64,000 nt of DNA from Echinococcus granulosus (taxonomy: Eukaryota; Platyhelminthes; Cestoda; Cyclophyllidea; Taeniidae): contig NW_020170422.1 of assembly GCF_000524195.1 (NCBI RefSeq), positions 66,791 through 130,790 on the forward strand, read 5' to 3'. The notes under the pieces were generated by a model. That model was not told the origin of the DNA. It worked only from the letters and a program-made list of their open reading frames with translations, and ran no database searches. Every line of letters begins with the position of its first letter. The first letter of the stretch is position 1. Position numbers and translations under genes: made by a program. This document shows, in pieces, positions 1,510 through 43,198 of the stretch.

Positions 1510-4500
1510 AAACAGCTTCAAGAAGCCATGGCTCACACCTCTGAAACGGACACTGAAGTCTCTCGTCTCCGCGACTTACTCGCTCAGATGCAAACCAAAC
1601 ACGACACCATGGAGACGGCGTTGGTGATGGCACAAGAGGCACAGGCGGCAGCCGACATGGCACGCCGCCACCTCACTGATGATCTTGGTACTCTGCAGGG
1701 TCGCCTGGCCTTCGAGGTCACCGCCGCGGGTTTGTTGACTCCCGAGGCAATTGCTTTTGCGGAGGCGTTGGCTGCGGCCCTCTCGCGGCGCAACGCTGAG
1801 GTGGATCAATTGGTGGAGCAGTTGCGTGCTTTCAGGGATGTGGAGAGGAAGGAGGTGGGCTTGCAAGCTTCTGTGGAGACAGTGAGTACACAGATATCAG
1901 CATACTCTGCTTATTTGTCGTTTCTTTCTGTGAACTCAGACAAATACTTGTTAATAGTACCTTTATCGGTAGTTGGAACATGATTTATGGCCTCGATACT
2001 ATGTTTTTCTAGAATTTAATGCTCGTCTAATTACTAATATCATGTCTGTTTCAGTCACCTACTTAACAGCTAATTTTCCATATTTGAAGTCTGTATCAGG
2101 GAATTACTCTGAGGATCTAATTATATCTTGGAATCATCGAGTTTTCCTCTCCTTTTTCTTTTCGCCATTGGTTTCATTCACTTCCTGAGGATTGATTTCT
2201 TTCTTTATTTGTCAGGACAATTGTGTATTGTTTGCGGACCGCGACTACGATTTTTTCTCACCTCCTGAACGCATTTTATTCATTTAACGTACGAGTATTG
2301 CATATAAATGTTGATTGAAATTACTGCAATTGTTAGTGGACACCTTCAGTTTATGGCGGTCGCTTTAGTAGGTTGAACAATCTCCCATCTTTCCACATAA
2401 GTGATCTAGTCCTGCTTTCTCTTCCCTTATCCTCTGAAAAGGGTAGACGGGCCCATCACCCACTCTCGTTGAATTTGCCCTTATCTGCTCACTTCTAGTT
2501 ACACAGACACGAAACACACTCCCTTGGGATTAATTGCAGTCTTTAGCATGACATTTCGAATTCTGACCTTCCGACTTCCTCTTAAGTAAATAGCTCTTCA
2601 CTTTCCTTACACAAGTTCGCTAAAACTAGATTTACTGGGTGAGTTGGTAAGTCTGTTTTTCCTGCATGATAAATTAATTGACATTATGCGATCTAGCCCT
2701 TCTAAAACGATTTATTTTAGCAGTAGGCGATTGTGAAACCTGGTTAAAATTTAATGTGTGTGTAATAAAGCATTATCCCAAGCGATGTCTCGTTCCTTTT
2801 TTTCGGAACAAAGTTTGGCTGATGTCGTCGTCACTTTAATCTCTATATTCATCTTTCGCAATTTATTTCCCCTTGCAGCCCCATAAATATAGGCCTGTCA
2901 ACTGTTGGCTTTCGAGCCCAAGGTTTTTTATTGGTCTCAATAAAGGATCTGCCAACTGTGGTACTCACTTATCCCCGGCAGAATCTGTCTAGCTGGTGAG
3001 GCTAATGCTCACATGTTCTGTTTCTTTTATTTTTCTTAACGGAAATAAATCAGCTGCTCAACAGTAGGCATTCCTTTGGCTTGGTCACCTTCGCTCTGGA
3101 GTTTTTAGGCACAAAATTACCTGTCTAGAATTTTTGTTTCCGAAGTTGGCATTTCAAGCTTAAAGAAACTAAACCACAAACTGCGATTTGGTTATCCGTG
3201 GCTGGTGGTGGATTTGAGCAAATTTTTGTCCTATCTTCTTCCCTTTGTATGTAAGCTTATTCGGCTAGTGTGAAGGCGTGTGACGGATAATTCAAGTTCT
3301 GTGTTTTTGTGTGGTACGATTTATGTCGGCTCGCTATTTTTTTCCTTCCCTCAATCGGTGCGTCGCAGTTTTACCTATGCCGATTCTCTCTGCCAAATAG
3401 ATTAAAAGATTTCACTCTTTTGCTCCCCGTTTTAGTGTTATATGATTTTTGTTTCAATTTGAGTTATTATAAATTTTGACTTATCCGAAGTTAACGTTCG
3501 TCCCTAAGTTGGTTCTATTTTCCACTTTAGTTCTAGATATATTGCCTGTGAATTTAGCTGGGCTTGTTTGATTTTAGATTTGTCGTCTTTGTACAAATTT
3601 CCTCTTTGATAATGATTAAAAATGGCCCCGTGCATAGGTTATAAAGCCCTGTGTTGCACTTTTTCCCAATTTTCGTTTAATGAATTGTAAAACCGGTTGA
3701 ATAACTGTTTTTAACATAATTCAATTTAAGATCTACGTTTCCATATTAGTGTCTTTTCTACAACTTGCACTCTAAGCTGTTTTTGTCCGTTTTTAAACTT
3801 GTTTTAGATTGAACGAGACTAAATATTAGATGCATCACTTGCTAACTTTTTGCACTTAGATCTCATCACCTTACCACCCATACTCCTTCCTTACTATCTC
3901 ATGCAATCGTCCAACTTACGAGGTCACGCCGTGATTCACGTGCGTCTTGTAGAAATCCACTAGTGCATCAATTCAAACAGAGGCTGCGGAGGAAGAGGGT
4001 CCGGTGCAGGCGAAGGATAAAGAGATCAATCGGTTGAACGACGACCTCATTCAAACTTCAGAATCCCTTGCCTCCGCCACAGAGCAAATCTCACGTCTGG
4101 TAAATTATTCACTTTGCAAAGGGAATAGTAGCTGCATCCACATAATTTCTGTATTGTTCAGGCCGCTATCGAATGTAATTGGTCAACACTACGGTATTGT
4201 TATCTACGAAAATATCTAGAAATCGCAATCAGACGGCAAATTAATTTTGGGCTTGTTTTGACTGCAGACAGGAGATAGCGCCTGATGCTGCTCTGCTAGC
4301 TAGACAGGATTTCTGCTTTTGAATTTGATAAATTAATTTTGCAGGCTTTTCGGAAGGATTAGCAAGTCCCTTTTACCTTTTTATATTATAGTTTCAGGTT
4401 GTCACCAAGTAATACGATTTTGGGTCAATGAGTGAAGTCCGTTTTGTTGCTAAGTGAAAATAGAACACGTGTAATTTGTCCTTTCGACAGTACGACGGGT

Positions 4501-7500
4501 ATTCTGCGGGTAGAATGATTGTTTGCCAGCCTGTAGCGCAACCTCCCATCAGAAGTATCTTCAGAACGTTTGACAGACATTGACCATCTATTAAACAACC
4601 TGGTTTTGTACAAAGCATACTACAACCCTAAGTCTTGACAGAAATCGACAGGTAACTTCATAAGCTGCGACGCCCAGTTTATAAACGCCTTTAGCTGAGA
4701 TCGTCTTTTTGAGCTGAAATACTTTTAAAGGACCAAGACAATACAATCTGTTCATTGAATAGCGCAACAATCGTTCTTTAGATCTGATGGCTGAATATCT
4801 GAGAGGTGATATGCACACCATCGTGACTTGAGGCACAGCATGTGTCGGTTTGCTACTGCCTTTTAAGTCGGGATAATTTCTGAGCAAATACTGTGAAATA
4901 ATTAGTTAGGCTGCTATAAATTCCCTGAGTTGTGGTGTGAGGTTAATCCACCTAACAGCAAAGACGTCATAAAATATCAATGACGCCTGACCGCTAGTAA
5001 GTGCTCTTTTATACCATTAACTGATTCTTTGGGATGCCTTTTAAAGACGGACAACTCAGGCCTGGAGGGCGAAGACATCCTAATCTAATAGTGGGTTTCT
5101 GCCCAGGTTTTAAAGGATTGACCTATTATATCCTGATTACGAACCGCATTATTATACGCTGTATATGACTGAAATATATTCTCCAGAGTCAGCATAGCGT
5201 AGAATTATCTTACTGAAAGAAAAACAATAAATTGTACGATATTAAATATATTCATGGAGTCGTGTTCTTCGCTATTGTCTCTCCTCCTTTAATACTAATT
5301 ATTTTCAGGCTCTTGTAGCGTGCAGGGTCATTAACTGGTCATATTTCGCCATTGCTAGCACTTTTGTGGAAGAATCGGACCTGACTCGTCGTTTTCCGTG
5401 GATTGAAGTTTGAATAGTTGAAGGAAATCGATTCCAATTTGATGATCCTTCTGTTGGAAGCTTCTGCACGCTTGGTCACTCAAGGGAGATGTCATCCTTC
5501 CGCGACTTTTTGCTGCAGCATCTTGACTGGTAGATTTGAACAACGCTGATGGCAACTTCGTTTCTGAGTTACTTTTGTCTAGGCGATGGAATACGCATGT
5601 CTGGAAATAGTTGCATCGTTCAGCATATATAAATCCTGGTTGAGAAGACTGGAAAAGGCTCGGCTGATCAATTTTCATCTAGTGCAAATACCAGCCTTGT
5701 TAACATTCTGTTGACCACCTCTCCTCGACTGTAATATTCTGCGGTTCGTTTGGGTGTCTTGCAGTGAGGGCTTCCAGACGGGTATTCTTCTAGACCGATA
5801 AGTGAATACAAACATAGGTGGTGGGATACGACTCTTATCCATCGAGTAATACCTGCTTTCTGAATCTATTTAATTGGTTTTATTCGTACTCATCAGCGAG
5901 AGCAATTGGAGTCGATGGAGGAGGAGTGCCGACAGGAGCGGGCGCTCTCGGCACGAGCACACCACAACTGCGAGCTAAACGAGCGCGAGGCACGTCGTTT
6001 CCATGCCCTAGTGGAGCACCATCGCTCTGCTACCGTCGCTTTCGTGGCGGGTCTAGAACGTGGTGGTCTGATTGAACGCGGCACCTCCTCCTCAGCCTCC
6101 TTTACGGAGAGTGATGTATCCTACCAGCTCAACTCCCTGTGCTCTCAACTATTACTCACCTTTGGCAATCTAGAGGTACGTCTTTTTGTCTGCGTATCCA
6201 ACCACCCCTTGGTCTATCAGGAAATCACTATTCTTCCCACTTATCTTTGCGCCCATTCATTCATTCATGGGCTGACGTCTGATCCATTTGGCTGTGCATC
6301 CGTCAGTTAAACCTTTAATTTCCATCTGCTAGAGAATTACTTCTCCATTTAAGGTCTTTAATAGACAATCCATCTATTCCTCCACCTACTTACCTGTGTA
6401 TACCTCCTTCATTTTCCATTTCAATCGGATGCAAAACCTAGATCGCCGGAAGGCTTGTCTCTGCAACCTTGTTCTGCGGCCACTGCATCTCCATATGCCT
6501 TAGTTTCCAAATTGTCTCAGTTTTCACGAATATTTTCTTCCATTTTGTCTAATTGTGTCCAGCTTCCACTAAAGCTCGACTGTCTTTGTGTCTGTGCATC
6601 TGTCCGGTAATGTGATTATAATGTCTATGGCTTCTCTTTGCATCGTTTTCTACTCTGGCTTAGCCTCCTCCCAGTTAAATTTGCAGTTGAATCATAGTTG
6701 CCATGACGTGTCATTCTGTATTGTTACAAGATACCTATAAAGTCGTTAAAACGATTTCCCTTTATTTGACCTTGACTCGGCTCTCTAAACTGGAGTTATT
6801 TGAAAATCTACCTGTCCGCATTTCCACCCATTATATTTTTTCTCCAGCTCAATCGCAGCTAACTATGTCGTGTTTATAAATGCTTTTGATGGAGCCAATT
6901 CCTATTCGCCACTTGCTCCGGTATTTGACTATACAATTGTGCTTATAATTGGCACGCTTTACGTCATGTGATACTCTCGCTTTTCCTACAGAAATGAATT
7001 AGTGCCTGTTGTTTACCACGTCGCTTGCCTACCCGGCAGTCTGTTGTGTAACCGTTGCATCTCACAGAGTGGATATTAAAATTACGGAAAGCTGCGCACT
7101 TTCCCTTTACTAACTGACTTTTATTGGCACACTCCTTGGCTCCACCCTTCCGTATCTGATCTATCCGTGTACTTGAATTGATGTAGTACCTCAGCTAGTA
7201 GTGCTTGGCACTTCTTTAGTCAAAACTGCCGACATTCCTTTCGTTTTCATGCATCGCTTTTGTGCCTACGTTTTCGTCGTCTGCCTTAGTTGTAAGCACT
7301 ATTGTGCTTCAAACCAAATAAACCAATACGTTTCTTGAGGTGAACATTTTTGACAGAACTCTGTCGCCCTCTAGAATCCCCTGAGGATGAGAGAAGACAT
7401 TGCTCTGGCAGAATATGCATTGACGACCTATAGAAGGACTTGGTGCCATCAGCATAGCCCAAAGGCCAGGCTACCCGACAAGGAACAACGGCGGAACTCC

Positions 7501-10500
7501 TAGTTGACTTGTTAACGAACTCAAGAGTTCAACAAATGAAACATTATAAAACATCCTTGAGAATTTATCCTCTGAAGCTTTGATGCACTTTTTCAAATTC
7601 AATAGAAGATTTATCTCGGTTTTCTTAGCGTAGTCTTGTGAATTTAGGCATAGGTGAAACTCGGCCTTCCACGTGGATCAACAAAGCTCATGAGGACTTT
7701 TGCAATTAGCTTATCGAGTCAACGATTCGGATTTTCACATTTCTTTTTGATCCTCCATCTCCACACCCCAATACAAGTAGTACTGCAAAACTTTGGTATT
7801 ATTTGCAAACTAAATGGTGATTTTTGGGTTTTGTCGAGTGAGGTGTAAAGTGTAATCCACTTTATTTTCATAGATTGAAGATTAATATTAACGAATATTA
7901 CTAGGTCTCCATTGCTCCAAGGTTGTTGATGCTTATGGCGAACACTTGTGGATAATATTACGTCCTCTATTGAGGAAAGAGCGTTAGCAAATCTACTTGG
8001 TGACATTGGTTTCGTAGTAAGCAGCTCCCAGTCTCTACACAGTTAATGTCTCTTGGGAGATCTGAATCTGAGGTGAGTTTAAAATGTAGAAAATGAACAT
8101 GGACGAATTCCGGTCCTTCATCGTTAGACCTTTTGCGGCTTCTCTCCAAATGTTCCATGAAGAATGCCGAAGGTGTAATTACTGCCCTCCGAAACCGCAT
8201 TATGGCTCAGATGTCGTCAGTATACATTTTTAGAGGTTCATGGTTTTTGCCGACTTTTAAAATCCATAAAAGGTAATGATTTATTTGAATGGAAGTTTAT
8301 GGATTTCAATGTAACCCCCCACTCCCAGTTTGGTCGACTGAGTAGTCACAAGTATTAATGGTTTCATTTTCTGGTTCCAACAGCAACAACAACAACCTGA
8401 CTAACTACGATATTGTGCTGTTTGACCAAATCGGCGCAGATTTATTGTGTAATTTAAAACAGTGCAGATTGCTATCATTTGTTTTGTTGAGCTATATGTT
8501 CCATGAAGCGTTGACTCTGGCATGAAAATTTTTGGGCTGAATTGAATTTGGTCTCGAGAACATTTTTTGATGGGAGCGAGGCCAGTAGGATCGCTGGCGT
8601 CCTTCAGCCTCAGGCGCCCAACGCATTCATGACCCACTTGCCATCACTGGAATGCTAATGGCGTAGGTGGTAATTACGCCTCCCTACTAATCGGTTACTG
8701 CTGGGATTTCCGTTGGTAAATATTGTCTAAGTCTTGTTTTCGCCAAGTTGTTTCTATAAGTTTCACAGACTTATTCAAAATATTTAACATTTGGTCTAGT
8801 TCAGTAGGTGGGACGGTTTACATCGGGAGAACTAGAAATAATTGGCTAAAGTCCAGTTAATAATGCTGGATCTGTTTGCGTCACGCTATGCTATAAAAAT
8901 TATTTTGATTCATGCTTCATTGATAGGCTTTCGGTCTGTAAATGGGTCTGTGCTCTATTTAACTAACAATAGGAGTTAGCAGGATTATCCTTGTTTACTT
9001 TCTTCCCCTTTACAGGATGTGCTCAAAGAAAACTGTCGATTGAAGGATGAGGTCTGTCTTTTGCGCCAGAAAGTGGAGAAGAGCCGCGAACTGAAACGTG
9101 AGAGTGGTTTCCTTTTATACTTTTAGCCTTCTCGTGACACTTTGTTTGCTTTCTAACTCTATCTCTTCTTTTTTCTCAGAAAAGCTGCGCAGCTTAAACG
9201 AGAACTCTGAGTACCTGGAATCCGAGGTGCATCGGTTGCTGAGGAAGGTGCGTTTCCTTGTTGAAACAGTTAATTTCGAGATGGTTACTTGTTCATCTCG
9301 AGCCTTGTTCTATATTCCAGGCTAATCCTAGAGATAATACAGGACGAGTATGCTTGTAAATAAATTCATTTTTGCAACCCAGAAGGACTGAAGAGCAGGA
9401 AATACGAGTGGTACGATATCAGAGCCATCCACAATTATCGTGGGAATCGTATCGTATCGAATGGGAAGTCAAACTGGACGATTTCCAAACGAGGAGGCAT
9501 TACGCCTTGATTTGCTAGGCGATCCTAAAAAGTATATTTGTTGCTAGCTTCTTTTGGGGAGCACTTGGATCGGAACAAAGGCATCATAGGAATGAATTCG
9601 TTCTACCAATCAACAGCGAATGAGTGATGGGATTTCGTGTAGTCAATAAAAAATAATCGAATAAAAGCAAACTTTTTGGAATATCAAGGATTACTGTTTT
9701 ATTCAAAAGATGTTACAATATTCTTGGTGCCAGTGGTACTCGGCTCGAGGCCATTCGGTCAGATTGTTAATGCAACTTCACCGGGTTGATTGTGGATAAT
9801 TATCCGATTCGGGGTCGCTAACTCGCTCATAGGTATCAGGAATGACCGTGCTATTTGCACCTTCAAGGTTCTCTGGAAGACGTATGAATAATTAAGTTAC
9901 TGGCAGAGGAGATGATGGACGCTCCCGTTTGGGAATGTACGCCTTAGTACCAAAATTTAACTATTTCGATGTTTGTTTTCTTGCAAAGATAAACCGCCAA
10001 CTTGAGGTGGGTTAACGACTTGAGTGCGGAATGATTTAAGAGCTTTGAGAGTTGTCCTCTTGCTTGGATGCGTGGCTAGGGCAAAAATATCCAGCCATTA
10101 AACTGTGTTTAAGCGATTAACATGAACAGTTTAAACGCCTGAAAAAATATAATATTGAAAATATTGCTATCTTTTAACCGGTACATCATACCGGTGTCAC
10201 GATGAAGTAGCATGGGATAAGTGAAGGGGATGGGATTTGAACTCACTTCTGGGCTCTTGGAAGGACCATTCTCTTGGGTGGTTCGAAGAGATGGGGAAAC
10301 CCGATAAGAATATTTGCCCATCGTTCTTGGCCTTCATTGGTAGCCTCACTGGTGTCTGTTTCTTTCACTTACAGCAAAGCCTCCCCAGTGAGCTGCGAAG
10401 GTGCCCACACATTGCAAGACCAATTGGTAAGCCTTTCATAATTTGATTGTAGTGGTCTCACCTTACCGGTTTGGTGTGGTAAAGGTCTGGTTACTTCACT

Positions 10501-13500
10501 TTCTACTAATTTTCTAGCCTATTGAGGTGTTCGGTGCGCCACTTTGAATGTGGTCAATCGCCGTTTATAGTGACCCACCCCCATCCTCTGCAAAGTGGAT
10601 TGTGGGAATGCCGAAGTTTTGTCGGTTTCCAACAGTAGGTTCGCTTGTTTAGAACACCGTACTTAAGGTTAGGGGTATTCGGCTCGTCTTTTGCCTTCAT
10701 CACTGCTTTATTGTTACCACAAAGGTACTCAAATGAGTGAGACTCGTTTTCCAAAATGCTTGCTGACTTATTTTAGCATTGATAGGTGGTGCTCAGCTTG
10801 AAGGTCGTGTTTAACTGTCTCGTTAACAGATATTACATTTCGAAACGTTGAAGAGTAGTGTGTAATTAATGCGCTTTTGAAATCGCCGCAGACCAGTTAT
10901 GGGTTTTGTGGTAAACACTGTTAAGGTTGGAGCGGGCTAATAACCTTATTCGCCTTTTTCTGGAAAATTCTGGTCGATTGCAAAGCTGTGTAATATGCGT
11001 GTATTTCGGCTTGAAAGTAAAGTAATTTTCTCTTTGCTAAAGCGAAGTAGAGGGTTGTGCGCATGGGCTGGTATTTGGTATCAACGAATTTGCATTTCTA
11101 ACAAGCTTTATTTTCCCATTATGATATGTAGAGGGAGCGGATGGGGGGTACACTTTTCAAAGAGTTACCGCTTTTCGCTTACCTTGGTTGGACAGAAGCG
11201 TTGTGAGCAACTATCCATCTGCCGTCTGGCATACCGCGGCTAGTTAGCGTTCGTGTCATTCCCTAGGACCGCATAAGGCTTACCGACTCAGTAGATTTAT
11301 TATTAATAATGCTTACCAAAGAGAGTCTAAGTAGCATGAATATATTCGGTATGCGAAGTACTGAAGAAACTCATAGGCAAAGTACACAATCAAAATACTC
11401 TTAGCCGAAGGCAATGCCTTTATGATACTTGCACAATCGGACATCAAGTGGTCATCCACTTTTTGGGTTGGGATGTTTTTTTTTTTTAAATTGAAGGATC
11501 TCATCGCCATTGTTTGTCTTCCTTTTCGCTCAGTTGAGGACGCGCAAGACACTGAGGATGACAGCGTGGCCTACACCGACCTGAGTCAGGTCTCCTCCCA
11601 TCTTCCCTTCTCCTTACCCTCCGATAGCCCTCGTGATGATGATGGTGGTGTTGAACCAGTGGCCCAGCGCCCTCATCGCCCCCGCGTTGGCGGTAGTGGA
11701 GGTGGTTCAATGCCCCCACCTCCGCCCCCGTCCTCACTCCGTCGTCCCACTACCTTCGAAATATCCCCTCCATCACCGATCACAGGGCGAAGTAGGAGAC
11801 AACCTAACCCTTTGCCTCCGCCTCCTCTACCCACTCATCCTCGGTCTGGTAAGCGCGACATTTCTGGCTAGAAAGGGCTATTTAGTACTAACTGACGTGC
11901 TTCATTTATACATGAAGCCATTCGCATTGCTCTAACGAGTTGCTACCAGCCGTTAGTTAGATCTGCTTTTCTATGCTCGGAAATATGCTCCCTTAACACA
12001 ATACGGATAGAATGGAATGCTTTTCTTGTTGCGAGCCGGACAGATTGGTTGAATAGATTGTAGTTTTAGGATGTTCTTGGTTTACGGTTAATCGAAAAAA
12101 GGACTGGAAACATTCTCGTTTTACATCACATTAGAAGGGGAAAGCAGCTGAGCCGTGGAACTCGATTTTCCACCAAGATCCTGGTAGCAAACATGTTACT
12201 GTCGCTTTATTCTTGTAACCTTTGATGTCGCTTATTTTTCCATATTGTAAAAGAAGTCCGTGGTGATGACTTCACCATCTTGGATTGCTTCAGATTAACT
12301 CTTCTGTTCTCAAATTTACTTCTGATGTTCAGCATCCAGGAGATCATTTCACATTTCAGGTGGTGACGCATAACTTAAGGTCATGCATCAAGTCATTGTA
12401 ACCCGGGTATTTTTTGTAGGCTCTTGCCTATTCTCCTCATCAAATGGATTCTGTCCCTTCGTGAACTCATATATTCCTCAATTTTTTTCTAATACCACCC
12501 TTCACTATTTAATTAGCTTAAGTTCCTGTCTTTTGAGGCTGGATGCTCAAGCAGGTGCAGATGTAGATTAATCTTCGTTTTAGATGCTTCTTTTTCAATG
12601 GTAGTATTAATTGATTCTTATTTAAGAAAGACAATAGTGTCGAGAAGTTAGATCTTTGCAGGGGTTTGTATTTCATTTCCAAAGAACGAGGAATAATTAG
12701 GATTGATTAGGTAGACGTTTGTTGACGTAGTGCATCAAGCATTTACCAAAGTCTCCCGCCTGACACCCACTCTTACGTATTCACTGCTTGAAGTTTGTAT
12801 TTATTTTTAAAATCAAGGCCTCCGTGTTTTAACCGTGAATCCTCAACGAACGATAATAACAAGTGAATGCCACTGCCAAGTGTTGACCGTGGATGCATAG
12901 TTGCGATTTTGAAATAACATTGGGTTTGTACCATTGTTTTTCGTTCACACCTAGTTCATACAATTGCTCCCCTACCCTTTGATGGCTCTCCCCTACTTAG
13001 CCCTGGTGGATACGGGGATTTAATTTCGTCCCATTTTTTCAAGGCATCATCTGTTATTCTTCCCTTCTTTCTAACGCATGGAAAGGTGCTTTCATCGCCA
13101 CTTCGCTTTTTACCTAGTATTCAAATTATGATCCTGTGCGGATGTTTGTTTCCGGGGCACATTGCCACTTTAGAAGGATCCTGTGTGAAGTATTTGAGGT
13201 AAAGCGGAATAACTTTGTAGATTCCATCCAACCTGGGTCTCAACAGCCCTGTCACGATGCTGTGTCAGTTTAATTTTACAAGACCTCTTGAGATGGACAG
13301 AATGTCTGCGATTAATCATTCCTATTTCGCTATTGTATGTATTAACGGATTGGGACGTTAGGCTGTTAACAAGGAGAGGTTGTTTTTTGTTTCATACTTG
13401 TGTCAGAATGTTTTACCAGAAAAAATGAACCTGTTGACAGGCGAATTCATGGCACTAGTAGCTCTTGTGTAGCTTTTCTTAGCTGCGCCAAAGTTAAGAC

Positions 13501-16500
13501 TCCTCTTAGTCCACGGACACATAATCCCTGAGTTACACCTGAAGGCCTTACGATATACGGCCCTAGACGTAGGATTGTTGTGGAAAAGAAGAATTGAGAG
13601 CCTGAAAACGTGGGTGGAAGTCCAGCAGTATGCTTTTACATCCTGACTGGAATTGGCTAGGCACAATTGTCCATCGGGTGCAGAACAATTTTCAAATTTT
13701 TATAGCAACTTGCCCTGTCCTCTTTTTTTCAGCCGCATTCGCTTTGATACAGGTGTTGGTCTCTGCTTGAGATTGCCAAGTTTTAATGAAAGCCGTGATG
13801 AGAAGTTATGGTGTTTCAGCATGAAAATATTGCAAAACAGTTTTTCTATGGTTTGTTTTGACTTACTGAATTCTGGTCTTGCTGGGTTGGTAGCTGTCAT
13901 ACGAAACCCGAGATGAAGATAATTGCTGAAAGTAGGAAAGATTTCGATACCACTTTTGTCGTGGGCACAAAATTCACGGTCAATGACCTTTTGGTGTAGT
14001 ACCGAGTCCGCGATATCGAGTTTTGTGAAATCGCCAGAACTACTGCCATTGCGATGCCTAAACCATCTCTGGAGGAGTAACGAAGCATAAAATTTGGAAG
14101 TAGCCTTTTTTGTAGACTCCAAGGCGGACTAAGAGACTAGCGGCATGGGCACTTTAATGCCACTGGCGTGGGTGCTGAAAAGACGACTCGCATGACATTA
14201 CCTATTTAGCTGAGACAAATGCTGTTCTGCTACTTCGCCCTTCAAGTCTCTAGCTCTTTTATCCCTTTAACCACGCTAGCACGCTATAATTCCATGGAGC
14301 CCTCCACCGCAAGCAATGTGACGCAGACCTATCCGGCTGCGCACAGCGGGAATATTCGGACACACAATGCCAAAACCGTCCCCACCCCAGAACGGCCCGG
14401 TAAGTTACCCATGGATTCTCGCTGTCGCTCTTTTATGTGAAGAAAAATTACGGAGACCTTTGGACTAGAAGACTTGCTTCATCGACCTAGCTTCTAGAGA
14501 GATCTGCTGTTGTCCAAGGTTGTCAGAGGCGTTTTTATTTTGAACTCCGTGTTAACGCGTCAGTAACTGTTATTATGTCGTTTATTCACCAAATCGAACC
14601 GATATTGGCGCATGAACTGGTTCTGAGTGTTGTTGAAATAAATTGCAAGATCAGCAGCGACTTCTTGCATAGCGTTTACCGAATCCTTGTCCTTATTATC
14701 TGAACAAGGGCTTTAGGTGTTGAGGTTTTTCAAAAAACTCTTTGGTGTATTCATCTTTGCACGTCACCTTTCAAAATGAGTCCATTTTGCTGGCATTCAG
14801 CGGAATAGCGGCAGTGGTCCACCTAATCTGCATTTGAATCAGTATGCATGCTCGATATTGTTATAGGCCGCAAGGTTTATAGGTGACAGTGTGGAGTTTT
14901 TCGCTGTGTATGCCGGACTCACCATGTGATTGTGTATGCGGTTTTTGAAGTTTAATGGGGTGAAAATTTGCCTGCGCAAGTGGACGAGTCAAGCACACAA
15001 CGTAATTTGAACATGAATCGTGGTGAACACGCAGGGTGAAACAAACAACTACTCGTGTTTGGTGTTTCCACCCTCCCGAAGTCATAAAAGGTTAATGTGA
15101 TGAATGTAAATTAATACCTTAGGTACTGTCTTTGTGCCCTTGCTTTTGAAGACGCAGTTTAAGTGGTTCAGTTCTTCTTTCACTGACTGCAGTTGATGGA
15201 CCACGGAGGTTTAACTTCGAGCGTCAAATTAAAGAAAGGTATCTATTTCTGTGTGGCAAACCAAAGGCAACTGTTTCAACGCCATTTACCAATGATAGAT
15301 CGTCTTTAGGAAAAAAGTTTCGTGTTAGGACGGAGCAACTGATGAAATCCAAGTTTTGCGACATCTCGATTGGTATTGTTTTGCGAATCTGGCATCGTTA
15401 ATAGACGACTTGTCGGGCTAATTGTGCCGATTTAAGCAATATTGGCCCTTCATTTCGGGAAAATCATTGGAGTAGGGATTACACTGAAGGGAAGATATGA
15501 CTTTTAAAACCAAACAACGCGCTGAATGCTGTCTTATTTCCCCAAGTTCTAAAATTATGCTGAGGTGCGTTAGCGTGCGATTTTTAATGACTAATTATGG
15601 AATGGCAATGACATGACGTACATACACCTAGCGGTCAGGTGGGTTAATTTGTTGCAAACTTGCTTTCACTTCCTCCCGTCTCTTTTTTTCAGAGGATCTT
15701 TTCGCTCGTTTGGCTGAGCTTCGACGACGCAACGACCTTCAGCCCTTCCATCTACGCACCAACTATCCCGTGGAGACTCAAGTTCGTTCTTTTTTTGCCA
15801 CTTTTGGTTGTTTTACGCAGGCTAAAGATGTCAATCTAACTCTTTTTGTGATGCCGATGAGTTTACTGTTTGCCATCTTGATGGCTTTGTGTTCTTTGAA
15901 TGCCAGAAGCTGGTTGCTGTAGCCCTGAATTGAGTCACTCTGGGCTCTCTGTCGTCTGCTTGTTGTCAAAAGGCATCTTCTAACAGCGAGCGAACTTTTC
16001 AGTTCTTTTCATCTTAACATGCATTTGTTCCGACCTTGGAGTTCAAGATTTAGTCAGGGAACTGTCTGCTAAAAGATTGCATCGGTTGCTTCCTTAAGAG
16101 GGTCTCAGTTTAGCTTTAATGATGCTATCTTTCACACCCATTGTCGTAGCTCTTCTAACCCGAGTAATTACTGCCATAGACTATTTCTAGGATGAAAATC
16201 TTAATTTTGTGCATTCAATATTGGGAGGCTGTGTATGGTTCCACATAGATTCTGATGTAGGCTACCATTAAATGAGGATTACCTGAAGTACCTTTGATCG
16301 CGTAATATGAAACCGTACATGCTGAAGTTTTGCTTTCCGCAGCGATACGGGTACTATGAACTCTGAAGGCGCTAAGGCATTGAGAGGTGTGTTTGAGACA
16401 ATTTGGGAGTTTTGACCTCATGAAAGACAGGAACACAGCTTTTGAGGAGTTGTGACTGCTTTGGGTTGTCATTCGTTTCCTTACTTGGGCGTAGAAAGCT

Positions 16501-18655
16501 TTTTCAGTATCGGTTGAACCATTCTAGGAAGATCTGGGCGTCTTGGTGCCTACCATGTACTAACTTTTTGAAATGGTAGATCCCTTTGAATGATTGTGCC
16601 CACCATTTTCTATAGAAAAATCTGTCGCCTATTGATCATGGGTCCATGACCCGGGGGGTTCTCGCTACTGCTGGTAGGCAGCATTGCCTGTTTCTGTGCA
16701 TGCCATCACCACGACGACATTCTCTTTTTGTCTGTAAACTTAAGTGCCCATTTGATGTTTTGCTCAATCATCAACGGGAATCACTTAGCCTTCTTAAATA
16801 AGGCTTTAACAGAATCTTTTAAATGGCGTGGGCTGATCCCTTTTTTCTATTATGCTCAGCTACGGAGTCCAAATGAGCTCTACTCGATGCTGCAGACGGT
16901 TCACAAGAGCGGTCTGGAGCAGCAGCAACAACAACAGCATTCAGAGGCAGCTACATCTGCGGTGTCAGGGTCGGGGGTGGAGAGTAGAAGGGATGCTTCG
17001 CCGATGCCGGCCGGTCGCTCGCTGCGTCCCAAAGGCCTCCAGTCAATATCCGAAGTGCTTTTGACTGGTGCCTCGGGTATTGTGGGCGCGGAGCATCTTG
17101 ACCTCTCCTCCACTCGGGCTCGACCCACTGAGTCCTTGCTCGTACCCCGCGGTGGACAGAGTACTACTGGGGTTTGTGGTCTTTACCTCTGACATGGAAT
17201 TTCCGATTCCAACTTGTTCAGTGTGTTATTGCTCGTTGAGGTTGGCTTTTCTTCAAAGCTACATTTCATTCAGATTATGCAGCTTATCTGGTAGAGGTAT
17301 TAACGACTCATGCACTTGACACGAGTTTTAATTTTGAAACTTTTAACACCTTTGGAAGTTTATTTGGCCGGTCTAGGGGAAGTTGATTGTTACTCCTCAT
17401 TTTGCACCTTGAAACTGTTGCCCTAACGAAATTTGTTAAATGCGGGTTTTTTCTCTCTTCAAGATGGCTAAAAGTTCCAGTTAGGAAAATTTCGACGACG
17501 TTAAATCCTTTCGTGGTATCTTTGCTCCTTGGCATTGGTATTAACCATGATCGTAGTTTTTCTCCTTTTTTTCATTTCTTTCTCTTCATTAGTTAGATTA
17601 GGATTTTATTTTCCCTTGTTTAGGAACTGTCGTTATTATGCTGGAAGAAGTGCCTTTTGGTATCACTAAAAGTTATTCCTAGTTCGATAAACCTCTTTCT
17701 AAGTTATGCATTTCCACTTGAAGTCTGGAATTTTGGCCATTCACAGCCAGTTTTTTGTACCAGAAAATGACGGCTTCTTTGACCCAACATAGCTTCCTAT
17801 TTCACGGCGCGAAGAGGAGAGCGAGATGCAACCGGAAATGGTATCTATTGCAGTCAATTTTGCCCTAAAAGTGATATTTAAACGGTGGTAGTGTTTAGTC
17901 CACGCCTTTTAAGCATTATTGTATGGTACATTTTCAGGACATTCCATCCAATCGCTGCACAGAGGACCAGTTAATGATTGTAAGATGCTTTTTTATTGGC
18001 AAGATTTGCTCTCCTATTCGCTCTGTGTGGCGTTTTGGACTGAAAATCTATCCTTGTTGCGTGCTGTTTCTGTGCCGACCTTTGCTCTATTGAATAAATA
18101 CACTACTGATGTGAATTAGGAAAATATCGTGTTTTCTGTTTTTCCTAAATTTAGACCGCATCTGCACGAAACACCAGTCCATCTTGTACTGCCGTTAAGA
18201 AGGTGAGCGTTTGGAGTCGACTTACTTCTCTGTTGAGATTGTCATTCGAGTGCTTACTAGTTAGTGAATGCGTTTCACCAGCCACCTCTGGCCTTCGAAG
18301 TGGAGCTAAGCCCTCGGCAAAAACGGAGAACGGCTCCAGCTCTGATTCAGCGGAAGACGGCCTCTGAGGAGGGCGTCAAGCGTTCGAATGGTACTACCTC
18401 GAAGAGCACTGAGGAGAAGGCGCCCTCTGTAGCCAAAGTTTCCTCGACATCGGCAGCCGACCCCTCTACCTCCAAAGCCGGCAAGGACTGGGTAAGCGGT
18501 TTGGAAATTTTGGGGCTGTCGATGAGCAATAACGCATTTGGTGTTGGCAGCCATCTTGTCATTTTACCCTGCAGGTCAATCCTGTGGCGGTGGGAGCGTC
18601 AAATTCGCGGCGGCCGCTGAAGGAGGCGACTGGGAAGGTGAACAGACGCACCTAG
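1510..18655 (+). CDS. NuMA/Mud-like spindle-pole coiled-coil protein, 3' part (14 exons)
   Basis: Exons read from GT/AG borders with matching phase: 1510-1881, 3983-4099, 5897-6175, 9016-9097, 9180-9247, 10375-10426, 11534-11848, 14280-14399, 15693-15781, 16860-17171, 17938-17979, 18155-18202, 18282-18491, 18575-18655 (TAG). They sum to 2187 nt, 728 residues plus stop, in one frame throughout. The first five encode charged alpha-helical coiled coil. The 11534 exon is acidic, then Ser/Pro-rich with polyproline runs. The 15693 exon encodes RLAELRRRNDLQPFHLRTNY followed by PVETQ. Its spacing matches the human NuMA LGN-binding stretch, which has RIAELQQRN, then PPHLKTCYPLES (recalled from memory). 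The tail is basic (SPRQKRRTA), like the NLS/microtubule-binding tail of NuMA. In the family this C-terminal region links LGN/Pins to dynein for spindle orientation. The N-terminal region is not visible. Weak points are the 52-, 42- and 48-nt exons, the GTTCGT donor after 15781 and the GTTTGT donor after 17171. Extra phase-0 exons may lie in the long introns. Confidence 0.72.
7362..7535 (-). repeat. Solo LTR of TRIM-like element (diverged)
   Basis: The reverse strand matches the LTR family of this window. The shared central core reads GGCCTTTGGGCTATGC, and the right end TAGAGGGCGACA corresponds to the family end CGGGACGCTACA. The copy lies inside an intron of the NuMA-like gene, antisense to it. 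No internal element sequence is recognisable on either side. The outer 5' boundary is approximate. Confidence 0.6.
15693..15781 (+). other. Exon encoding the NuMA-type LGN/Pins-binding motif
   Basis: This 89-nt exon (2 nt of a split Glu codon, then 29 codons) reads E-DLFARLAELRRRN, then DLQPFHLRTNYPVETQ. The pattern R-x-AEL-xx-RN-xxx-P-xHL-x-T-xYP-x-E is shared with the NuMA segment that binds the TPR domain of LGN, and with the NuMA-like motif described in Drosophila Mud. The exon has a clear polypyrimidine acceptor. The donor is GTTCGT, weaker than average, but the next exon continues in phase. Confidence 0.72.
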
Positions 18656-20571: not shown

Positions 20572-21070
20572 GCTCATTTATTCAATAGAGGCAGAAGCCA
20601 CATACTTTAATGTATGACTCGTCTTAAAAACGTGAAGTTTAATTGTAAGAATTAAGAGATGGAATATTTTAGTGATTATGTAGAAAACGTGAGAATTCGG
20701 CAAAGAAAGGAACAAGTTGTACATAAATAACCCAACTAAAATTTTTGGTGGTACAGAGAACTTGTTTTCTGATTAGCTGCTAAAAATCGCACTGTCCCAT
20801 TAGAACAGGCCTGAATTATTGACATTTTAACAAAATTATACCGTTCAAATATAATAATATGCTGCAAAATGCTTGTGTTGCTTTCCACTTATGTCCGCGC
20901 CTCCCATAATAGCCTCTAAATTTTGCAAGCCTTAGTTTTACCTATGCGTGGCTGAAACACTTTGTAAAATCTTCTAAATCCACTTTTTCTCTCTATTAGT
21001 CATATGCAGTGACCATGGTAACATATGCCTTGGTCTCAAGGCCATTGGGGGTGTATTAGGTTTGGTGGTA
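20572..21070. other. Intergenic; probable promoter side of PSTK
   Basis: AT-rich DNA between the LTR element and the PSTK start codon. A pyrimidine-rich tract ending in ttag at 20999 lies about 70 nt before the start codon, so it may be a spliced-leader or intron acceptor. No other feature was seen. Confidence 0.35.
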
Positions 21071-22123
21071 ATGTATCCCGATGGTACATGTGACGACATT
21101 AATGGCGTCAGAGCATTAATTTTGCTCATTGGTTTACCTGCTGCCGGCAAATCCTACATTTCTAATAAAATTGTGGATGAAAGCTCCAAATTTACCTGCA
21201 TTTTAATAGAGTTTGATGACAATATTGTTTTTGGCCAGTCGAAGGATTTTAATGTGGGTTTTTGGTTAAGTAACAAGTGTTGTAGTGGAAGAGTGAGAGA
21301 AATGCCATATATTCTAGCATCCAAACGTTTATAACAGAGTTTGGAAGTGGAAATCGTTCCTTCGAAACTCAAGGTCTTCATATTCGCCTCCCTAAAGAAA
21401 CAACAGGGGATCTTCCCGTGGTTGTCATTTTAGATGATAATTTTTACTATCGGAGCATGAGAAAGCAGTACTTTTTACTGTCAAAGGCATGTAGGTTGCT
21501 GAAATTCTCACTTTTTATGATAAGGCAGGTGTGCATATCTAACAGTTAGTCTCCGTACTCCGTTAAATTTGTGTATTGAAAGGAATGCCAAAAGAACTCC
21601 TTCTATTCCTTCGTCGGTCCTTGATCGGATGAATGAGCGTTTTGAATGGCCAGACGCCTCAAACTATCCTTGGGAACGACATAACCTGGACTTAATTGGA
21701 ACGGAAAGTAATTACCCAATCGGCACCATTGAGGCCTTCATCGACTCCGTTTTACAACAGCCCCTAATATTCATAGATATGACGAGAGTGAAAGCTGAAA
21801 AGGAGAAGTCTCGTGCTATCAACAAAGCTAATCCAATTCACGCTCTTGATGATGTCTTACGTTCCCTTGTAAATGCCTGTGTCGCATCTTTATGTAAGTT
21901 TGGCTTCTCATCTATCTCCTGATTTACCGCTTTTATAGCTTCGGACCTTAGGAAGGAGTTTGGAAAGGATTTTAGCAGGGCAAAAGTTCTCACACTCTTG
22001 CAACTGAAGCCTTTAGCCGGCGAAAAATTTGTGTTACCACGTGTGGATTTCGAGGCGTGGATTCAGGCCGCTTTCACCAAGAATGTTGCCAAAATCATTC
22101 CATTAAATATAAATCTCTTTTGA
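21071..22123 (+). CDS. PSTK: L-seryl-tRNA(Sec) kinase (PSTK)
   Basis: Four exons: 21071-21253, 21340-21494, 21529-21893, 21939-22123 (TGA). Phases agree and give 295 residues. The enzyme phosphorylates Ser-tRNA(Sec) to O-phosphoseryl-tRNA, which SepSecS then converts to Sec-tRNA, so it serves selenoprotein synthesis. A P-loop GLPAAGKS is at residues 21-28. The VVVILDDNFYYRSMRKQY block is the PSTK/KTI12-type DDxxYYxSMR signature, and LNLCIERNAKR followed by the WPD...WE region matches the family lid. The 34-nt second intron (21495-21528) is supported because the joined peptide CAYLTVSLRTPLNLCIERN has the spacing of vertebrate PSTK. The open frame continues upstream of the ATG without a stop, so an earlier start or upstream exon is possible. 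The first intron border could shift by 2 nt. Confidence 0.93.
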
Positions 22124-23976: not shown

Positions 23977-26326
23977 ATGTTAAGCCACAAATCCACCTCA
24001 CTGTCTTCATCCGATCAGGCTGGATTTTTCAGAGCAGACTCTGTAATCTCACCTAATCAGCCATCGAAGGGCTTTCTTCCTCCTCACAGGCAGAAAACAA
24101 TAACCTTACTTAATGCCAATCCGGGCACCCATCCGAAGCTCACGCCCCCACCACCTAAGCTGTCCGACTGTGCTGGCATCCGCGTCAACCACAAGGCTAA
24201 ACGAGCCATCAATGCACGCAAATTCGCCCCTAAGGAGTACCGGACTGGAGACACCCTGGCAAGCTTCATTGGACCCAGTAGTGAGTACCCTATTTCGCAC
24301 GTATTCCATAGCGTTTTTCTGTTAGCATTTGAAATAAGCTGGGTATGTATTTGAAATGGGCTTACTTTTGTACACCTCAATCCTTTTTCACCTCTGATTA
24401 TTGACGTCCACTAGCTATTCACCTGTCCCCTTCTCACAATGCGTGTTTTAAATAGCCGTCTCATTTCGTCCTGCTCCGCTTTGTAGGCATGTTATACGGT
24501 AGGTCAACGAAGGCTGTCGACTTAAAAAAACATTTAGAGGAGATTGATCAGCCGGTGGAGCGCGACGACTTTTGGAGTCAGACCGACGAGTTTATGGCTC
24601 GACCCCCTAAACCAGCTTTCGTGCCTGCCAAGACGGGAGCAGACGTTGCAACCCAGGTTGAACCGTGGGAGGTAAGGTGGCGCTTGTGATTTCTGGCCTT
24701 CTGCTTAATTTGAAATACATTATTTTAAATTTATTTGGTCGATACAAATCTTTGGGAAATTCCTAGTATCCCGACATTAGTAAGGGTTACTTAATTTGCC
24801 TCCTCAATTGCACGGAACGCCGTAGGAAACGAATAGTCACGGACGACCAATTGCAAAGTTGGCTCATCTTATTTTGTTAACTTCATGGACGGCAATAAAC
24901 ATCCATGTGTGCTCACCCACGCTTCTAGCTCTTTGACTTCAATTTGGAAGTGACACCAGTGTTGGAAGTGTTGGTTGGCAAGACGGTAGAGCAGGCGCTG
25001 CTCGAAATGGCCGAGGAGGAGGAGCTCCAAGAGCTTCGAAGACGGCAGTACATCCAGATGGAGATCCGCGACGCCGATCTTGCAGAAGTTGAGCGACTGG
25101 AGGGGCGCAATAGGCGATACAGGTGACTTAATTCTGTCATCTTTGGGAGCGTAGCTCACTACCCACGGATTAGTAAAGTATTTTATAAACTTTTTTCTGC
25201 CCCTACAGAGAGGAACAGAAGAGACGCAAAGCTCAGGGCATACAGGCGGCTTGGATGCGAAAACGGACTGCAGACAAAATTGCGGCCCGGTGTTTCACCA
25301 AGGCCTACCTGGAACCACTCCTTCCCAATGTTTTCGAGCAGCTCACGCAACGCAGCTACTTCTACGACAATGTAGAGTATGGTAATTGCCTCTCATTCCT
25401 TTTGTACACCTTGCAACCTGTGTCAGGCCTAACATAATTTACGTCGGGAGAGAAGCGATCCTAGCTGAAGCAAATGTTGTGGTCGCCCTTTTTCAGAAGT
25501 CGAGGTGGAGTTCCTGAGTCCAATGGTGGAGCGCGTTTTGTGGCTCAATCAGCTTGAAAGACGCGCTCGCATTCTCGTGGATGGTGTCATACGAGAGGTA
25601 AGTAGTCCAACCACATTTCTCTGGAATGCATATGAAGCGATCTCACCCATTTAAGCACCCATTTTATCGTACCAGTTTTTGGTAATCAGTAGAACATTGA
25701 ACAGCTTAAAGATGGACTTAATTCGACTCCACAGATTAAAGTCTTATAATCATTGATAAGAGAGTAGTCTTTGAGACTAATAAATGAAGTAGTAGTGTCT
25801 TCTATGAAAAAAACTTGCCTGATCTTCAATTAAGCCTTCTTTGTCAACTCAATTCGCCTTTTTAACAATAGTAGTGCCTTGTGCACCGATCCAAGTTTAT
25901 TTTCCATGGCCCAGGCCTATAAAAGACCCAGGGAGTACTTGAGTTAAGAATGTGATATCTGTCACCAATTACTTCCCAGTCGAATTGCTATGCAGCCCCA
26001 CTAAAAGTGGTTGGATTTGCTTCTCTTACACAAAGGCTGTTGCCCAGCGACACACCGAATGGCGTGAGTTGGGTAGGGAACTGATGACACAGGCGCTAAT
26101 CAAGCTCTGCTATCCCATCATCGAGCTACGCGTTGCATTATGGGTAATAGACGAGATGGTAGACTTCCTTGTCCAATGCGTGTTTGTGGTCGCTACAGCA
26201 CACAAGGTGGTCGTGGAGCGAATGGTACAGGAGACATTTGAGATGGTACTCGATGAGACAGCCGAGTGGATGGAGAAGCAGGTGACTTCAACGGCTGAGA
26301 CAAGCCAGTTGCAAGACCGGCCATAG
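23977..26326 (+). CDS. RSPH3: Radial spoke head protein 3 homologue (RSPH3/RSP3)
   Basis: Six exons: 23977-24280, 24487-24671, 24929-25122, 25209-25381, 25497-25597, 26036-26326 (TAG), in phase, 415 residues. RSP3 forms the dimeric stalk of the axonemal radial spoke and anchors PKA in cilia and flagella. Diagnostic sequence is the family core from residue 164, LFDFNLEVTPVLEVLVGKTV then EQALLEMAEEEELQELRRRQ. The basic and acidic helix YIQMEIRDADLAEVERLEGRNRR and the block AARCFTKAYLEPLLPNVFEQL follow. Helical sequence ends the protein. The N-terminal 100 residues are Ser/Pro-rich. All donors are GT, four of them GTAAG/GTGAG-like. In a flatworm the expected sites are flame cells, sperm and ciliated sensory cells. 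Length is close to invertebrate RSP3 proteins. Confidence 0.95.
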
Positions 26327-41701: not shown

Positions 41702-43198
41702 TCACTTCTTAACAATGGCCAAATAGTAAGTCCAGTAGAAAATGTTGTACATAATGTAGCAGGTGGGAAATAAAAAGCGACTGTAAGCGTCGATTTCCGA
41801 CTCCACAGCCACTGGAACACGACTCTTTTTGTCACCCTTCTTAGCTCGTGCCTCCTCAATCACGGACTTGGTTAGGAAGGCATCTAGATCGTTAAAATAG
41901 GCCAGTTGCTGTTGGATAAAGCCCTGATCACCTCTCACACCTCCACTTCCCTGAATACTTGCCATTTGACCTTGCTCACATGCTGCTAACCACCGGGTTA
42001 ATTCTTCCTTCACTATCAATTCAACATCGCCTCGCCATGTCTCCTTCCTCTTCTGTCGAAGCATCGTGATTGCGATCGCGTATTCTACCAACACTCCAAT
42101 GACAAAGATGATGGAAAAGATGAGCCACAGGTCGATAGCTTTTATGTATGATACACGCGGAAGGTTGCCCGTGATTGAGGAAGCTTGTGTCAACAAACCC
42201 AAAAGGCTGAGTAGCCCTAGAGGAACTCTGGCTGGCGCGGCATCAACGGAAACGTAGAAGCTCAACCAGGAAACCATGATGATTAGGATGTTGGGGATGT
42301 ATGTGGTCACGAGATAGCTGCCTAATTGACGCTTGAGACTAAACTTAGCCATAAGGCAAGTGTAATTGCCAGTGGATGTGGAGGACTGGGCTGTGCAATC
42401 CAGGGTCGTGAAATTCGTAGGCGTATTAAATTCGGAGAGCTGGAGGTTATTCTGCAGTTCTACAGGCTCCTTTTCTCTCCAGACGAACTGAAGTTCACTC
42501 AGAGTATATCCATAACTGCCGATATTCATGTGGCAGTACTGAGTGTCCATAGGGAAGGTGGCAAGGTCCATTTGGCAAGAAAATCTCATAGTGATTTTCT
42601 GGCTATATAGCACTTCCCCATTGGGATGAACACGAAGAAGGTAGTTAGGGAGAGTCATTTTGTGCAAGTACCCGTCTTTTCCGTTACGAAAGAATAAATC
42701 TGGTAACCACAGGTTCTCTTTTAGCGTAGGGGAGACTAAGGGTTGAGTGTAATTTTTGAAACCTTCCCGGTGATTCCATGCCAAACGAGGGTCCGTCCAT
42801 GTCTGACGAAGCAGAGCATCGATGTAGTAGTCCATGGTGCGCACGTCGACAGAAAAGATTGCTAACACCTTCATATTTATCTCCACGACCGTGGGAATGT
42901 CCAATTTTTCTGTTGGACGTTCATGTGTCTTGTAGTTAGCGAAAAGCATCCCAACTAGTCGATCGCGTTGGGTAACTGCTTGAGGGTCCGTCTGGAGGTG
43001 TTGGAGTAGATCGCCCCCGTAGCCCTGACCTGTGTTGTAGGTCTCGTCACGGCGGTTAAGCGCCTCGTGTTCGGGCTCAACTGGACCTGTTTCAGTAAAT
43101 GGGAAGACACCAAATCCACCTTCTAGTTGAAAGCCCATTGTAGACTGGAGTTGGTAGTACAAGAGATCCAAAAATAGCAGTATTTCTAAGCAATGCAT
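41702..43198 (-). CDS. Cys-loop ligand-gated chloride channel, glutamate-gated (GluCl-like), intronless
   Basis: A 498-residue open frame on one exon. A hydrophobic N-terminus (residues 3-20) is a likely signal peptide. The Cys-loop is C208-C222 with 13 residues between. A second cysteine pair C268-C281, as in glycine receptors and GluCls, lies in loop C. Transmembrane segments are TM1 about 293-315, TM2 324-342, TM3 354-377 and TM4 474-495, with a long intracellular loop of 95 residues. Ala-Pro-Ala-Arg at 321-324 is the anion-selectivity filter before TM2. Flatworms use such channels for inhibitory glutamate transmission. The gating ligand is not provable from sequence; GABA or acetylcholine are alternatives. 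An AG acceptor lies directly before cATG (minus strand), so a 5' UTR intron or trans-splicing is likely. Odd residues are P2', L6' and a bulky Ile at the TM3 ivermectin position. Confidence 0.88.
   Translation of the reverse strand: MHCLEILLFLDLLYYQLQSTMGFQLEGGFGVFPFTETGPVEPEHEALNRRDETYNTGQGYGGDLLQHLQTDPQAVTQRDRLVGMLFANYKTHERPTEKLDIPTVVEINMKVLAIFSVDVRTMDYYIDALLRQTWTDPRLAWNHREGFKNYTQPLVSPTLKENLWLPDLFFRNGKDGYLHKMTLPNYLLRVHPNGEVLYSQKITMRFSCQMDLATFPMDTQYCHMNIGSYGYTLSELQFVWREKEPVELQNNLQLSEFNTPTNFTTLDCTAQSSTSTGNYTCLMAKFSLKRQLGSYLVTTYIPNILIIMVSWLSFYVSVDAAPARVPLGLLSLLGLLTQASSITGNLPRVSYIKAIDLWLIFSIIFVIGVLVEYAIAITMLRQKRKETWRGDVELIVKEELTRWLAACEQGQMASIQGSGGVRGDQGFIQQQLAYFNDLDAFLTKSVIEEARAKKGDKKSRVPVAVESEIDAYSRFLFPTCYIMYNIFYWTYYLAIVKK

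What the first reader, a model, noticed from the sequence alone, without database searches (positions are those of the whole stretch)
1510..18655. Divergent flatworm NuMA/Mud homologue recognised by its LGN-binding motif
NuMA, Mud and LIN-5 share almost no overall sequence identity, so flatworm orthologues are easily left as hypothetical coiled-coil proteins. Seen here: a coiled coil, an acidic/polyproline linker, then RLAELRRRN...PFHLRTNYPVETQ in a basic C-terminal tail. The motif agrees with the human NuMA LGN-binding segment at roughly half its positions with identical spacing. If right, it gives tapeworms the missing link between Pins/LGN and dynein for spindle orientation in stem-cell divisions.
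Basis: partly seen in the sequence, partly recalled or inferred. Interest (0 to 1): 0.85.

Follow-up and report, generated by a model that had tools for sequence, protein, structure and literature searches.

The report
Tapeworm NuMA, hidden under wrong names
This tapeworm gene, filed in databases as a hypothetical protein or under unrelated names, carries the short signature of NuMA, the protein that links the cell's edge to the motor that turns the dividing spindle, so spindle orientation in tapeworm stem cells can now be tested.

Summary
The claim holds in its core. Exon 15693-15781 (+) encodes [E]DLFARLAELRRRNDLQPFHLRTNYPVETQ. A human NuMA peptide matches one place in the 103.6-Mb genome, this exon (48% over 27 aa, E 0.043); its local score stands alone (64, next 24, of 56,211 windows). 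The motif is in 12 of 12 homologues found, from 10 tapeworm species, and is the most conserved stretch of the five compared. No listed name says NuMA.

Corrections: the gene begins about 17 kb before the window (25 exons, 1,247 aa; 13 exons inside). The solved LGN-binding peptide ends at ...IAELQQR, so only the front third of the motif overlaps it; the rest is the adjoining NLM (NuMA-LIN-5-Mud) motif. Two further NuMA landmarks, each weak alone, occur in the right order: a proline motif where the coiled coil starts, and GENLGSVF, matching human GEVLGDVL, the predicted dynactin-binding Spindly motif. An LGN/Pins orthologue is encoded in the same genome.

Not shown: the N-terminal Hook domain (sequence and fold searches did not recover it), transcripts, and any binding. 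A new, shorter member of the NuMA/Mud/LIN-5 family.

The parts
1510..1881 (+). coiled-coil exon (13th of 25; first exon inside the window, not the gene start)
   Evidence: matches E. multilocularis P0001
3953..4099 (+). coiled-coil exon
5897..6175 (+). coiled-coil exon
9016..9097 (+). coiled-coil exon
9180..9247 (+). coiled-coil exon
10375..10426 (+). linker exon (QSLPSELRRCPH...)
   Evidence: end set with P0001 as guide (the script had ended it at 10387)
11534..11848 (+). linker exon, acidic start then proline-rich
14280..14399 (+). linker exon ending in ...TVPTPERP; leads into the LGN/NLM exon with phase 1
15693..15781 (+). exon with the NuMA signature: [E]DLFARLAELRRRNDLQPFHLRTNYPVETQ
   Evidence: skipped in the strict run
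15707..15733 (+). RLAELRRRN: corresponds to the C-terminal helix of the human LGN-TPR-binding peptide (end of PDB 3ro2_B and 6hc2_B)
   Evidence: R-L matches Arg1905-Ile1906 that insert into LGN (PMC3438535)
15716..15781 (+). first 22 residues of the NLM (NuMA-LIN-5-Mud) motif, ELRRRNDLQPFHLRTNYPVETQ
   Evidence: motif bounds from PMC8047419
16860..17171 (+). C-terminal tail exon
17010..17084 (+). AGRSLRPKGLQSISEVLLTGASGIV: second most conserved block among five tapeworm proteins; function unknown
18155..18202 (+). C-terminal tail exon
18282..18491 (+). basic C-terminal tail exon
18575..18655 (+). last coding exon, ending ...SNSRRPLKEATGKVNRRT and stop
   Evidence: Spirometra P0012 ends SNSRRPLKETTSRTNRRT

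Best explanation
The locus is the tapeworm orthologue of NuMA/Mud/LIN-5, one copy in this genome as far as the searches saw. Shown by sequence: a protein of about 1,250 aa with an N-terminal segment of about 150 residues of unproved fold, a proline-marked start of the coiled coil, a GENLGSVF motif where human NuMA has GEVLGDVL, broken coiled coil spanning about 600 residues, a proline-rich linker, the LGN-helix/NLM motif and a basic tail. Inferred mechanism: the coiled coil makes a dimer; the front end engages dynein/dynactin (coiled-coil start to dynein, GENLGSVF to the dynactin pointed end, and possibly a Hook domain to the dynein light intermediate chain); the RLAELRRRN helix docks in the TPR groove of the LGN/Pins protein encoded on contig C144, which is tied by GoLoco motifs to G-alpha at the cortex; the overlapping NLM segment and basic tail hold microtubules. 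The complex would pull astral microtubules and set the division axis, including that of germinative (stem) cells.
For: Whole-genome search with the human peptide gives one place, this exon. Local score 64 vs 24 next best of 56,211 windows and 39 best of 200,000 shuffles. Profile-profile NLM match: probability 92%, E 6.7e-7, 36% identity over 53 columns. Motif in 12 of 12 homologues found; most invariant 25-residue window, 20 of 25, across five tapeworm proteins, with GENLGSVF third. The Spirometra protein P0012 maps only to this locus, 6 of 6 matches, in order. Proline motif SP..LVESPHW vs human SPASPMGDILQTPQF, whose P212 marks the coiled-coil start, in 6 of 12 records. GENLG[SA][VIF]F vs GEVLGDVL keeps E407, L409, G410 and in some V412; in 11 of 12 records. 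LGN/Pins TPR exon in the same genome: GPSM2 E 2.6e-47, Pins E 7.2e-43; GoLoco above cut-off. Dynein light intermediate chain present.
Against: The Hook domain was not detected: Pfam, the NuMA-Hook family in the genome (where no control rang either), a vertebrate Hook HMM at maximum sensitivity (ranks 28 and 198 of 489 listed, among 600 shuffles), PDB sequence and a low-confidence AlphaFold2 model (pLDDT 59) without fold match. The N-terminal half of the LGN peptide is weak: no counterpart of Phe1888 by eye, Glu-Pro-Glu in 2 of 12. The Spindly and proline matches are weak alone (P about 0.02 each, HHalign probability about 2%). My first gene-finding run left out the motif exon, and the script's own N-terminal exons differ from the ones that I placed by hand. 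Four Hymenolepidid records carry Pfam PF13851 (GAS, a microtubule-binding coiled coil), a possible other reading of the coil. The coiled coil is much shorter than in vertebrates. No transcript or binding data were available.
Confidence: 0.87

Rival explanations
1. It is a NuMA descendant that has kept microtubule binding through the NLM motif but no longer docks on LGN; cortical recruitment uses another route.
For: The best-conserved letters are NLM rather than the LGN peptide; the upstream part of the LGN peptide is poorly conserved. PMC3438535 (section 6) says the common LGN-binding signature has not revealed a Pins-binding peptide on Mud either.
Against: The helix residues matching Arg1905-Ile1906 are R-[LV] in 12 of 12; an LGN orthologue with TPRs and GoLoco is retained.
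Confidence: 0.2
2. It is another coiled-coil protein, as the database names say (Rab6-interacting protein 2/ELKS, keratin, TRAF3-interacting protein 1, CHMP7) or as the PF13851 (GAS) match of some records suggests, and the NLM resemblance is accidental.
For: Names attached to P0001, P0002, P0005, P0007, P0011 and PF13851 in P0005, P0006, P0007, P0011; PF13851 in P0005 is above its cut-off (46.3 vs 32.3 bits).
Against: Of the 12 records I scanned three (P0001, P0005, P0012): besides GAS the strong hits are KTI12 in P0001 and MIP-T3 in P0005, both behind the NLM and best read as neighbouring genes fused in annotation; P0012 has no family at E 10. GAS is not found in P0001, P0012 or my model, so it is probably a coiled-coil cross-match. 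Chance is ruled out for the NLM.
Confidence: 0.03
3. The motif exon is a prediction artefact and not part of the transcript.
For: No RNA evidence was available here; the donor site of this exon is weak (score -0.4) and the strict gene-finding run skipped it.
Against: Same exon spliced in frame in independently annotated tapeworm proteins; 20 of 25 residues invariant from Spirometra to Echinococcus.
Confidence: 0.02

Closest known systems
Human NuMA (NUMA1), Pfam PF21670 for its Hook domain
   Same: LGN-helix/NLM motif (13 of 27 identical, no gap), order of landmarks (proline at coiled-coil start, E.LG.V Spindly-like motif, coiled coil, LGN helix + NLM, basic tail), an LGN partner in the genome
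   Different: 1,247 aa against about 2,100; coiled coil spans about 600 aa; Hook domain not recognisable by sequence; upstream half of LGN peptide diverged; Phe and Glu-Pro-Glu contacts not clear
Drosophila Mud and C. elegans LIN-5
   Same: share the NLM motif by its definition, and have Pins and GPR-1/2 partners (PMC8047419 passages)
   Different: their sequences were not fetched here, so no residue-level comparison was made
Public tapeworm records: E. multilocularis 'rab6 interacting protein 2', T. solium 'Keratin type I cytoskeletal 12', T. crassiceps and Spirometra hypotheticals, Hymenolepis diminuta and Rodentolepis 'TRAF3-interacting protein 1', H. microstoma 'CHMP7'
   Same: orthologues; 95.9% (over 1,157 aa) down to about 33-34% identity
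   Different: named otherwise; several truncated at the N-terminus or fused to a neighbour

Membership tests
[quoted passage not shown]
NuMA/LIN-5/Mud | LGN/Pins-TPR-binding peptide just before the NLM | tested here: inconclusive
   C-terminal helix with R-[LV] in 12 of 12, Glu-Pro-Glu in 2 of 12; no Phe1888 counterpart seen by eye; binding not measured
NuMA/LIN-5/Mud | N-terminal Hook domain | tested here: inconclusive
   not found by sequence; fold model too poor to judge. By eye the segment has a Hook-like pattern (untested impression)
NuMA/LIN-5/Mud | long central coiled coil | tested here: met
   home-made, uncalibrated heptad scan finds seven segments between 258 and 842; shorter than vertebrate NuMA
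NuMA (dynein adaptor) | NuMA-type Spindly motif E.LG.V[hydrophobic] | tested here: met
   GENLG[SA][VIF]F in 11 of 12 records (P0004 begins behind it), one hit in the model; 247 of 20,000 shuffles contain the pattern; profile P 0.021, probability 2.3%; human assignment is an AlphaFold-based model in PMC11623564 (passages)
NuMA (dynein adaptor) | proline-marked start of coiled coil near the heavy-chain contact (P212) | tested here: met
   profile P 0.025, probability 2.0%; pattern, written after seeing the match, in 13 of 20,000 shuffles; present in 6 of 12 records, the other six missing it, most of them N-terminally short
NuMA/LIN-5/Mud | LGN/Pins partner encoded in the genome | tested here: met
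NuMA/LIN-5/Mud | cortical and spindle-pole localisation, spindle orientation phenotype | not testable with these tools
   needs experiments
ELKS/Rab6-interacting protein 2 | family domain of ELKS/CAST in the coiled coil | tested here: not met
   no such family among the six Pfam matches of P0001 at E up to 10; that Pfam holds an ELKS/CAST model is recalled

The most novel reading that the evidence does not exclude
Tapeworms keep a compact NuMA whose distant sequence independently picks out the dynactin-contact motif: GE.LG.[VIF]F is among the three best conserved blocks, while the earlier proposed human Spindly position (TLKQEA, 417-422) has no obvious counterpart. If right, the E.LG.V element, so far supported by a predicted model in human NuMA, is an ancient core of the dynein-activating front end, and flatworm stem-cell divisions use the full G-alpha/LGN/NuMA/dynein machine.
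Probability: 0.45. Interest if true: 0.65.

Novelty: new member of a known kind. Interest (0 to 1): 0.5.

Why it matters
NuMA-type proteins are so divergent that they are missed by name and by domain scans; here 0 of 12 tapeworm records carries the name in the (cut) listing. Identifying the gene, together with an LGN/Pins orthologue in the same genome, makes spindle orientation directly testable in germinative cells, which are said to be the only mitotically active cells of the Echinococcus larva (PMC10850878, abstract). The divergence also helps to separate NuMA residues that are kept (LGN helix, NLM, E.LG.V) from those that are not.

Tried and rejected
Rejected: gene start at 1510 (12 exons lie upstream); micro-exons proposed by my own gene finder near -1825, -963, -332, 9989 and 17793 (not in P0001 and removed); ELKS/keratin/TRAF3IP1 names. 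The first gene-finding run (stricter splice sites, start allowed only at -17500 to -16000) gave 22 exons, left out the motif exon and ended at 17192; I then relaxed the thresholds. The script's N-terminal exons (-17058/-17028, -16875/-16759) were replaced by hand-placed ones; these agree by eye with the Spirometra N-terminus, and the exon from -16989 is matched by P0012 at C231:49801-50019, but the first three exons rest on reading alone.
Full report
What is there. The exon at 15693-15781 (+) reads, with the split codon from the exon before, EDLFARLAELRRRNDLQPFHLRTNYPVETQ. The window lies at C231:66791-130790 of a 103.6-Mb, 272-contig genome. The encoded protein is 95.9% identical over 1,157 aa to an Echinococcus multilocularis protein, so the window is from an Echinococcus-like tapeworm; no call names the species.

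Gene model. I fetched 30 kb upstream and ran a small gene finder (codon usage plus splice-site scores). A strict first run skipped the motif exon, whose donor is weak, and stopped at 17192. With relaxed thresholds it carried the frame through the motif exon to the stop at 18655; its codon table had been trained on seed exons that included this one. Guided by P0001 I removed five false micro-exons and fixed two exon ends; the first four exons were placed by hand against the script's choice. The result is 25 exons, 1,247 aa, all internal junctions AG/GT, no internal stop. Thirteen exons are in the window; twelve lie at -17321 to -4952 (contig position minus 66790). The Spirometra homologue P0012, one protein, matches this genome at six places, all on C231 in order from 49801 to 83910. 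That ties the upstream exons, from the fourth on, to the motif exon, and no second copy appeared among the ten candidates scored. The first codon and first three exons are not proven.

Is the motif real? Against the human 27-mer the exon scores 64; the next best of 56,211 stop-free windows scores 24, and the best of 200,000 shuffles of the exon's own letters 39. A search of the whole genome with the human peptide gives one place, this exon, E 0.043. Profile against profile, tapeworm and vertebrate segments align over 53 columns with 36% identity, probability 92%, E 6.7e-7. All 12 homologues found (10 species; Mesocestoides corti gives three records) keep it. Across five of the tapeworm proteins (two of them from M. 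corti) the top 25-residue window of the 1,247-aa model is exactly RLAELRRRNDLQPFHLRTNYPVETQ (20 of 25 invariant; whole model 117 of 1,247).

Which part of NuMA is it? The solved LGN-bound peptides end at ...IAELQQR (3ro2_B) and ...IAELQQRNR (6hc2_B). A review (PMC8047419, passages) gives 1900-1926 as minimal LGN-binding region, 1922-1957 as NLM motif and 1914-1985 as microtubule-binding domain 1. So RLAELRRRN is the end of the LGN helix, and what follows is NLM. PMC3438535 (passages; section 6) names Arg1905 and Ile1906 as inserting into LGN; these are the R-I of RIAEL in the 2,101-aa human record P0035, and tapeworms have R-L or R-V in 12 of 12. Phe1888 has no clear counterpart by eye, and Glu-Pro-Glu occurs in 2 of 12, P0005 and P0006.

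Other landmarks. At the start of the coiled coil a profile comparison picked MSPLANIRSLVESPLWS (Spirometra) against GSPASPMGDILQTPQFQ (human), P 0.025 but HHalign probability only 2.0%. PMC11623564 (passages) describes a conserved proline, P212, at that place near the dynein heavy-chain contact. The tapeworm motif is in 6 of 12 records; the others lack that stretch in their annotation. The same paper assigns the human Spindly motif to LGDVL, with L409 and L413 in the p25 pocket and E407 outside. Tapeworms have GENLG[SA][VIF]F there, in 11 of 12 records, P0004 beginning behind it; it is the third most conserved window, profile P 0.021 with probability 2.3%, pattern in 247 of 20,000 shuffles. 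Each of these is weak alone; their order with the NLM makes the case. The tail after the motif has net charge +13.

What did not work. The Hook domain was not found by any sequence method, and the fold model was poor. To my eye the Spirometra segment EVYKLALLVLLGCLQTPSAVLFMDAALTLEVNMQREILHLIEEPM has the Hook pattern (recalled), but this impression passed no test. I mark it inconclusive. A GAS-type coiled-coil match (PF13851) in four Hymenolepidid records was not seen in P0001, P0012 or the model.

Partners. In the same genome a TPR exon on C144 matches human GPSM2/LGN (E 2.6e-47) and Drosophila Pins (E 7.2e-43) best among PDB chains, with a GoLoco motif over the Pfam cut-off further along the same strand. 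A dynein light intermediate chain is present. Inscuteable stays open.

What is known. Public tapeworm records carry unrelated names or none (names are cut there). Two of them, P0001 and P0005, contain domains of other families behind the NLM (KTI12, MIP-T3); KTI12 exons lie just downstream in this window, so at least that case is a fusion of neighbours. Literature searches for NuMA with planarian/LGN, Echinococcus, schistosome/stem cell/LGN, Schistosoma and Schmidtea, for spindle orientation in planarians and cestode germinative cells, and for the E. multilocularis name listed no paper that I recognised as describing a flatworm NuMA. I saw listings, and passages of PMC7349303, PMC12579930 (NuMA only in a reference), PMC8576264 (no flatworm), PMC10850878 and PMC11732142 (no NuMA). 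The Taenia crassiceps genome paper (PMC9128525, passages) mentions NuMA only as the partner of G-protein modulators. The held library lacks most subscription papers, and one search showed 12 of 225.

Verdict. A real, correctly recognised NuMA-family gene: a new, compact member of a known kind, mislabelled in databases. LGN binding is likely but unproved.

Noticed in passing
P0001, P0002, P0005, P0007, P0011: Tapeworm NuMA orthologues carry unrelated names; P0001 is joined to KTI12 and P0005 to a MIP-T3 domain behind the NLM, probably fused gene predictions.
   Followed up: partly
P0008 and P0010: Mesocestoides corti has two different NLM-bearing proteins, 384 of 843 columns identical (46%): a possible NuMA duplication.
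   Followed up: partly
17010-17084 (+): AGRSLRPKGLQSISEVLLTGASGIV, 16 of 25 invariant across five tapeworm proteins, about 50 residues behind the NLM; function unknown, no counterpart looked for.
   Followed up: no
20978-21919 (+): KTI12-like exons downstream of the gene: PF08433 at 21524-21919, a weak 6PF2K match at 20978-21331.
   Followed up: partly
41708-43219 (-): A 504-aa uninterrupted reading frame of a Cys-loop neurotransmitter-gated channel (PF02931, PF02932).
   Followed up: partly
56769-58535 (+): 589-aa reading frame with leucine-rich repeats (PF13855).
   Followed up: partly
25943-26323 (+) and L003:960-1355: Two similar-looking frames (radial-spoke-3-like by eye, no Pfam match) on either side of the NuMA gene.
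   Followed up: partly
L010/L011 (G000:C144): A tandem copy of about 3.9 kb near the contig end, upstream of the LGN gene.
   Followed up: no
54556-54655: Run of 100 N: probably an assembly gap.
   Followed up: no
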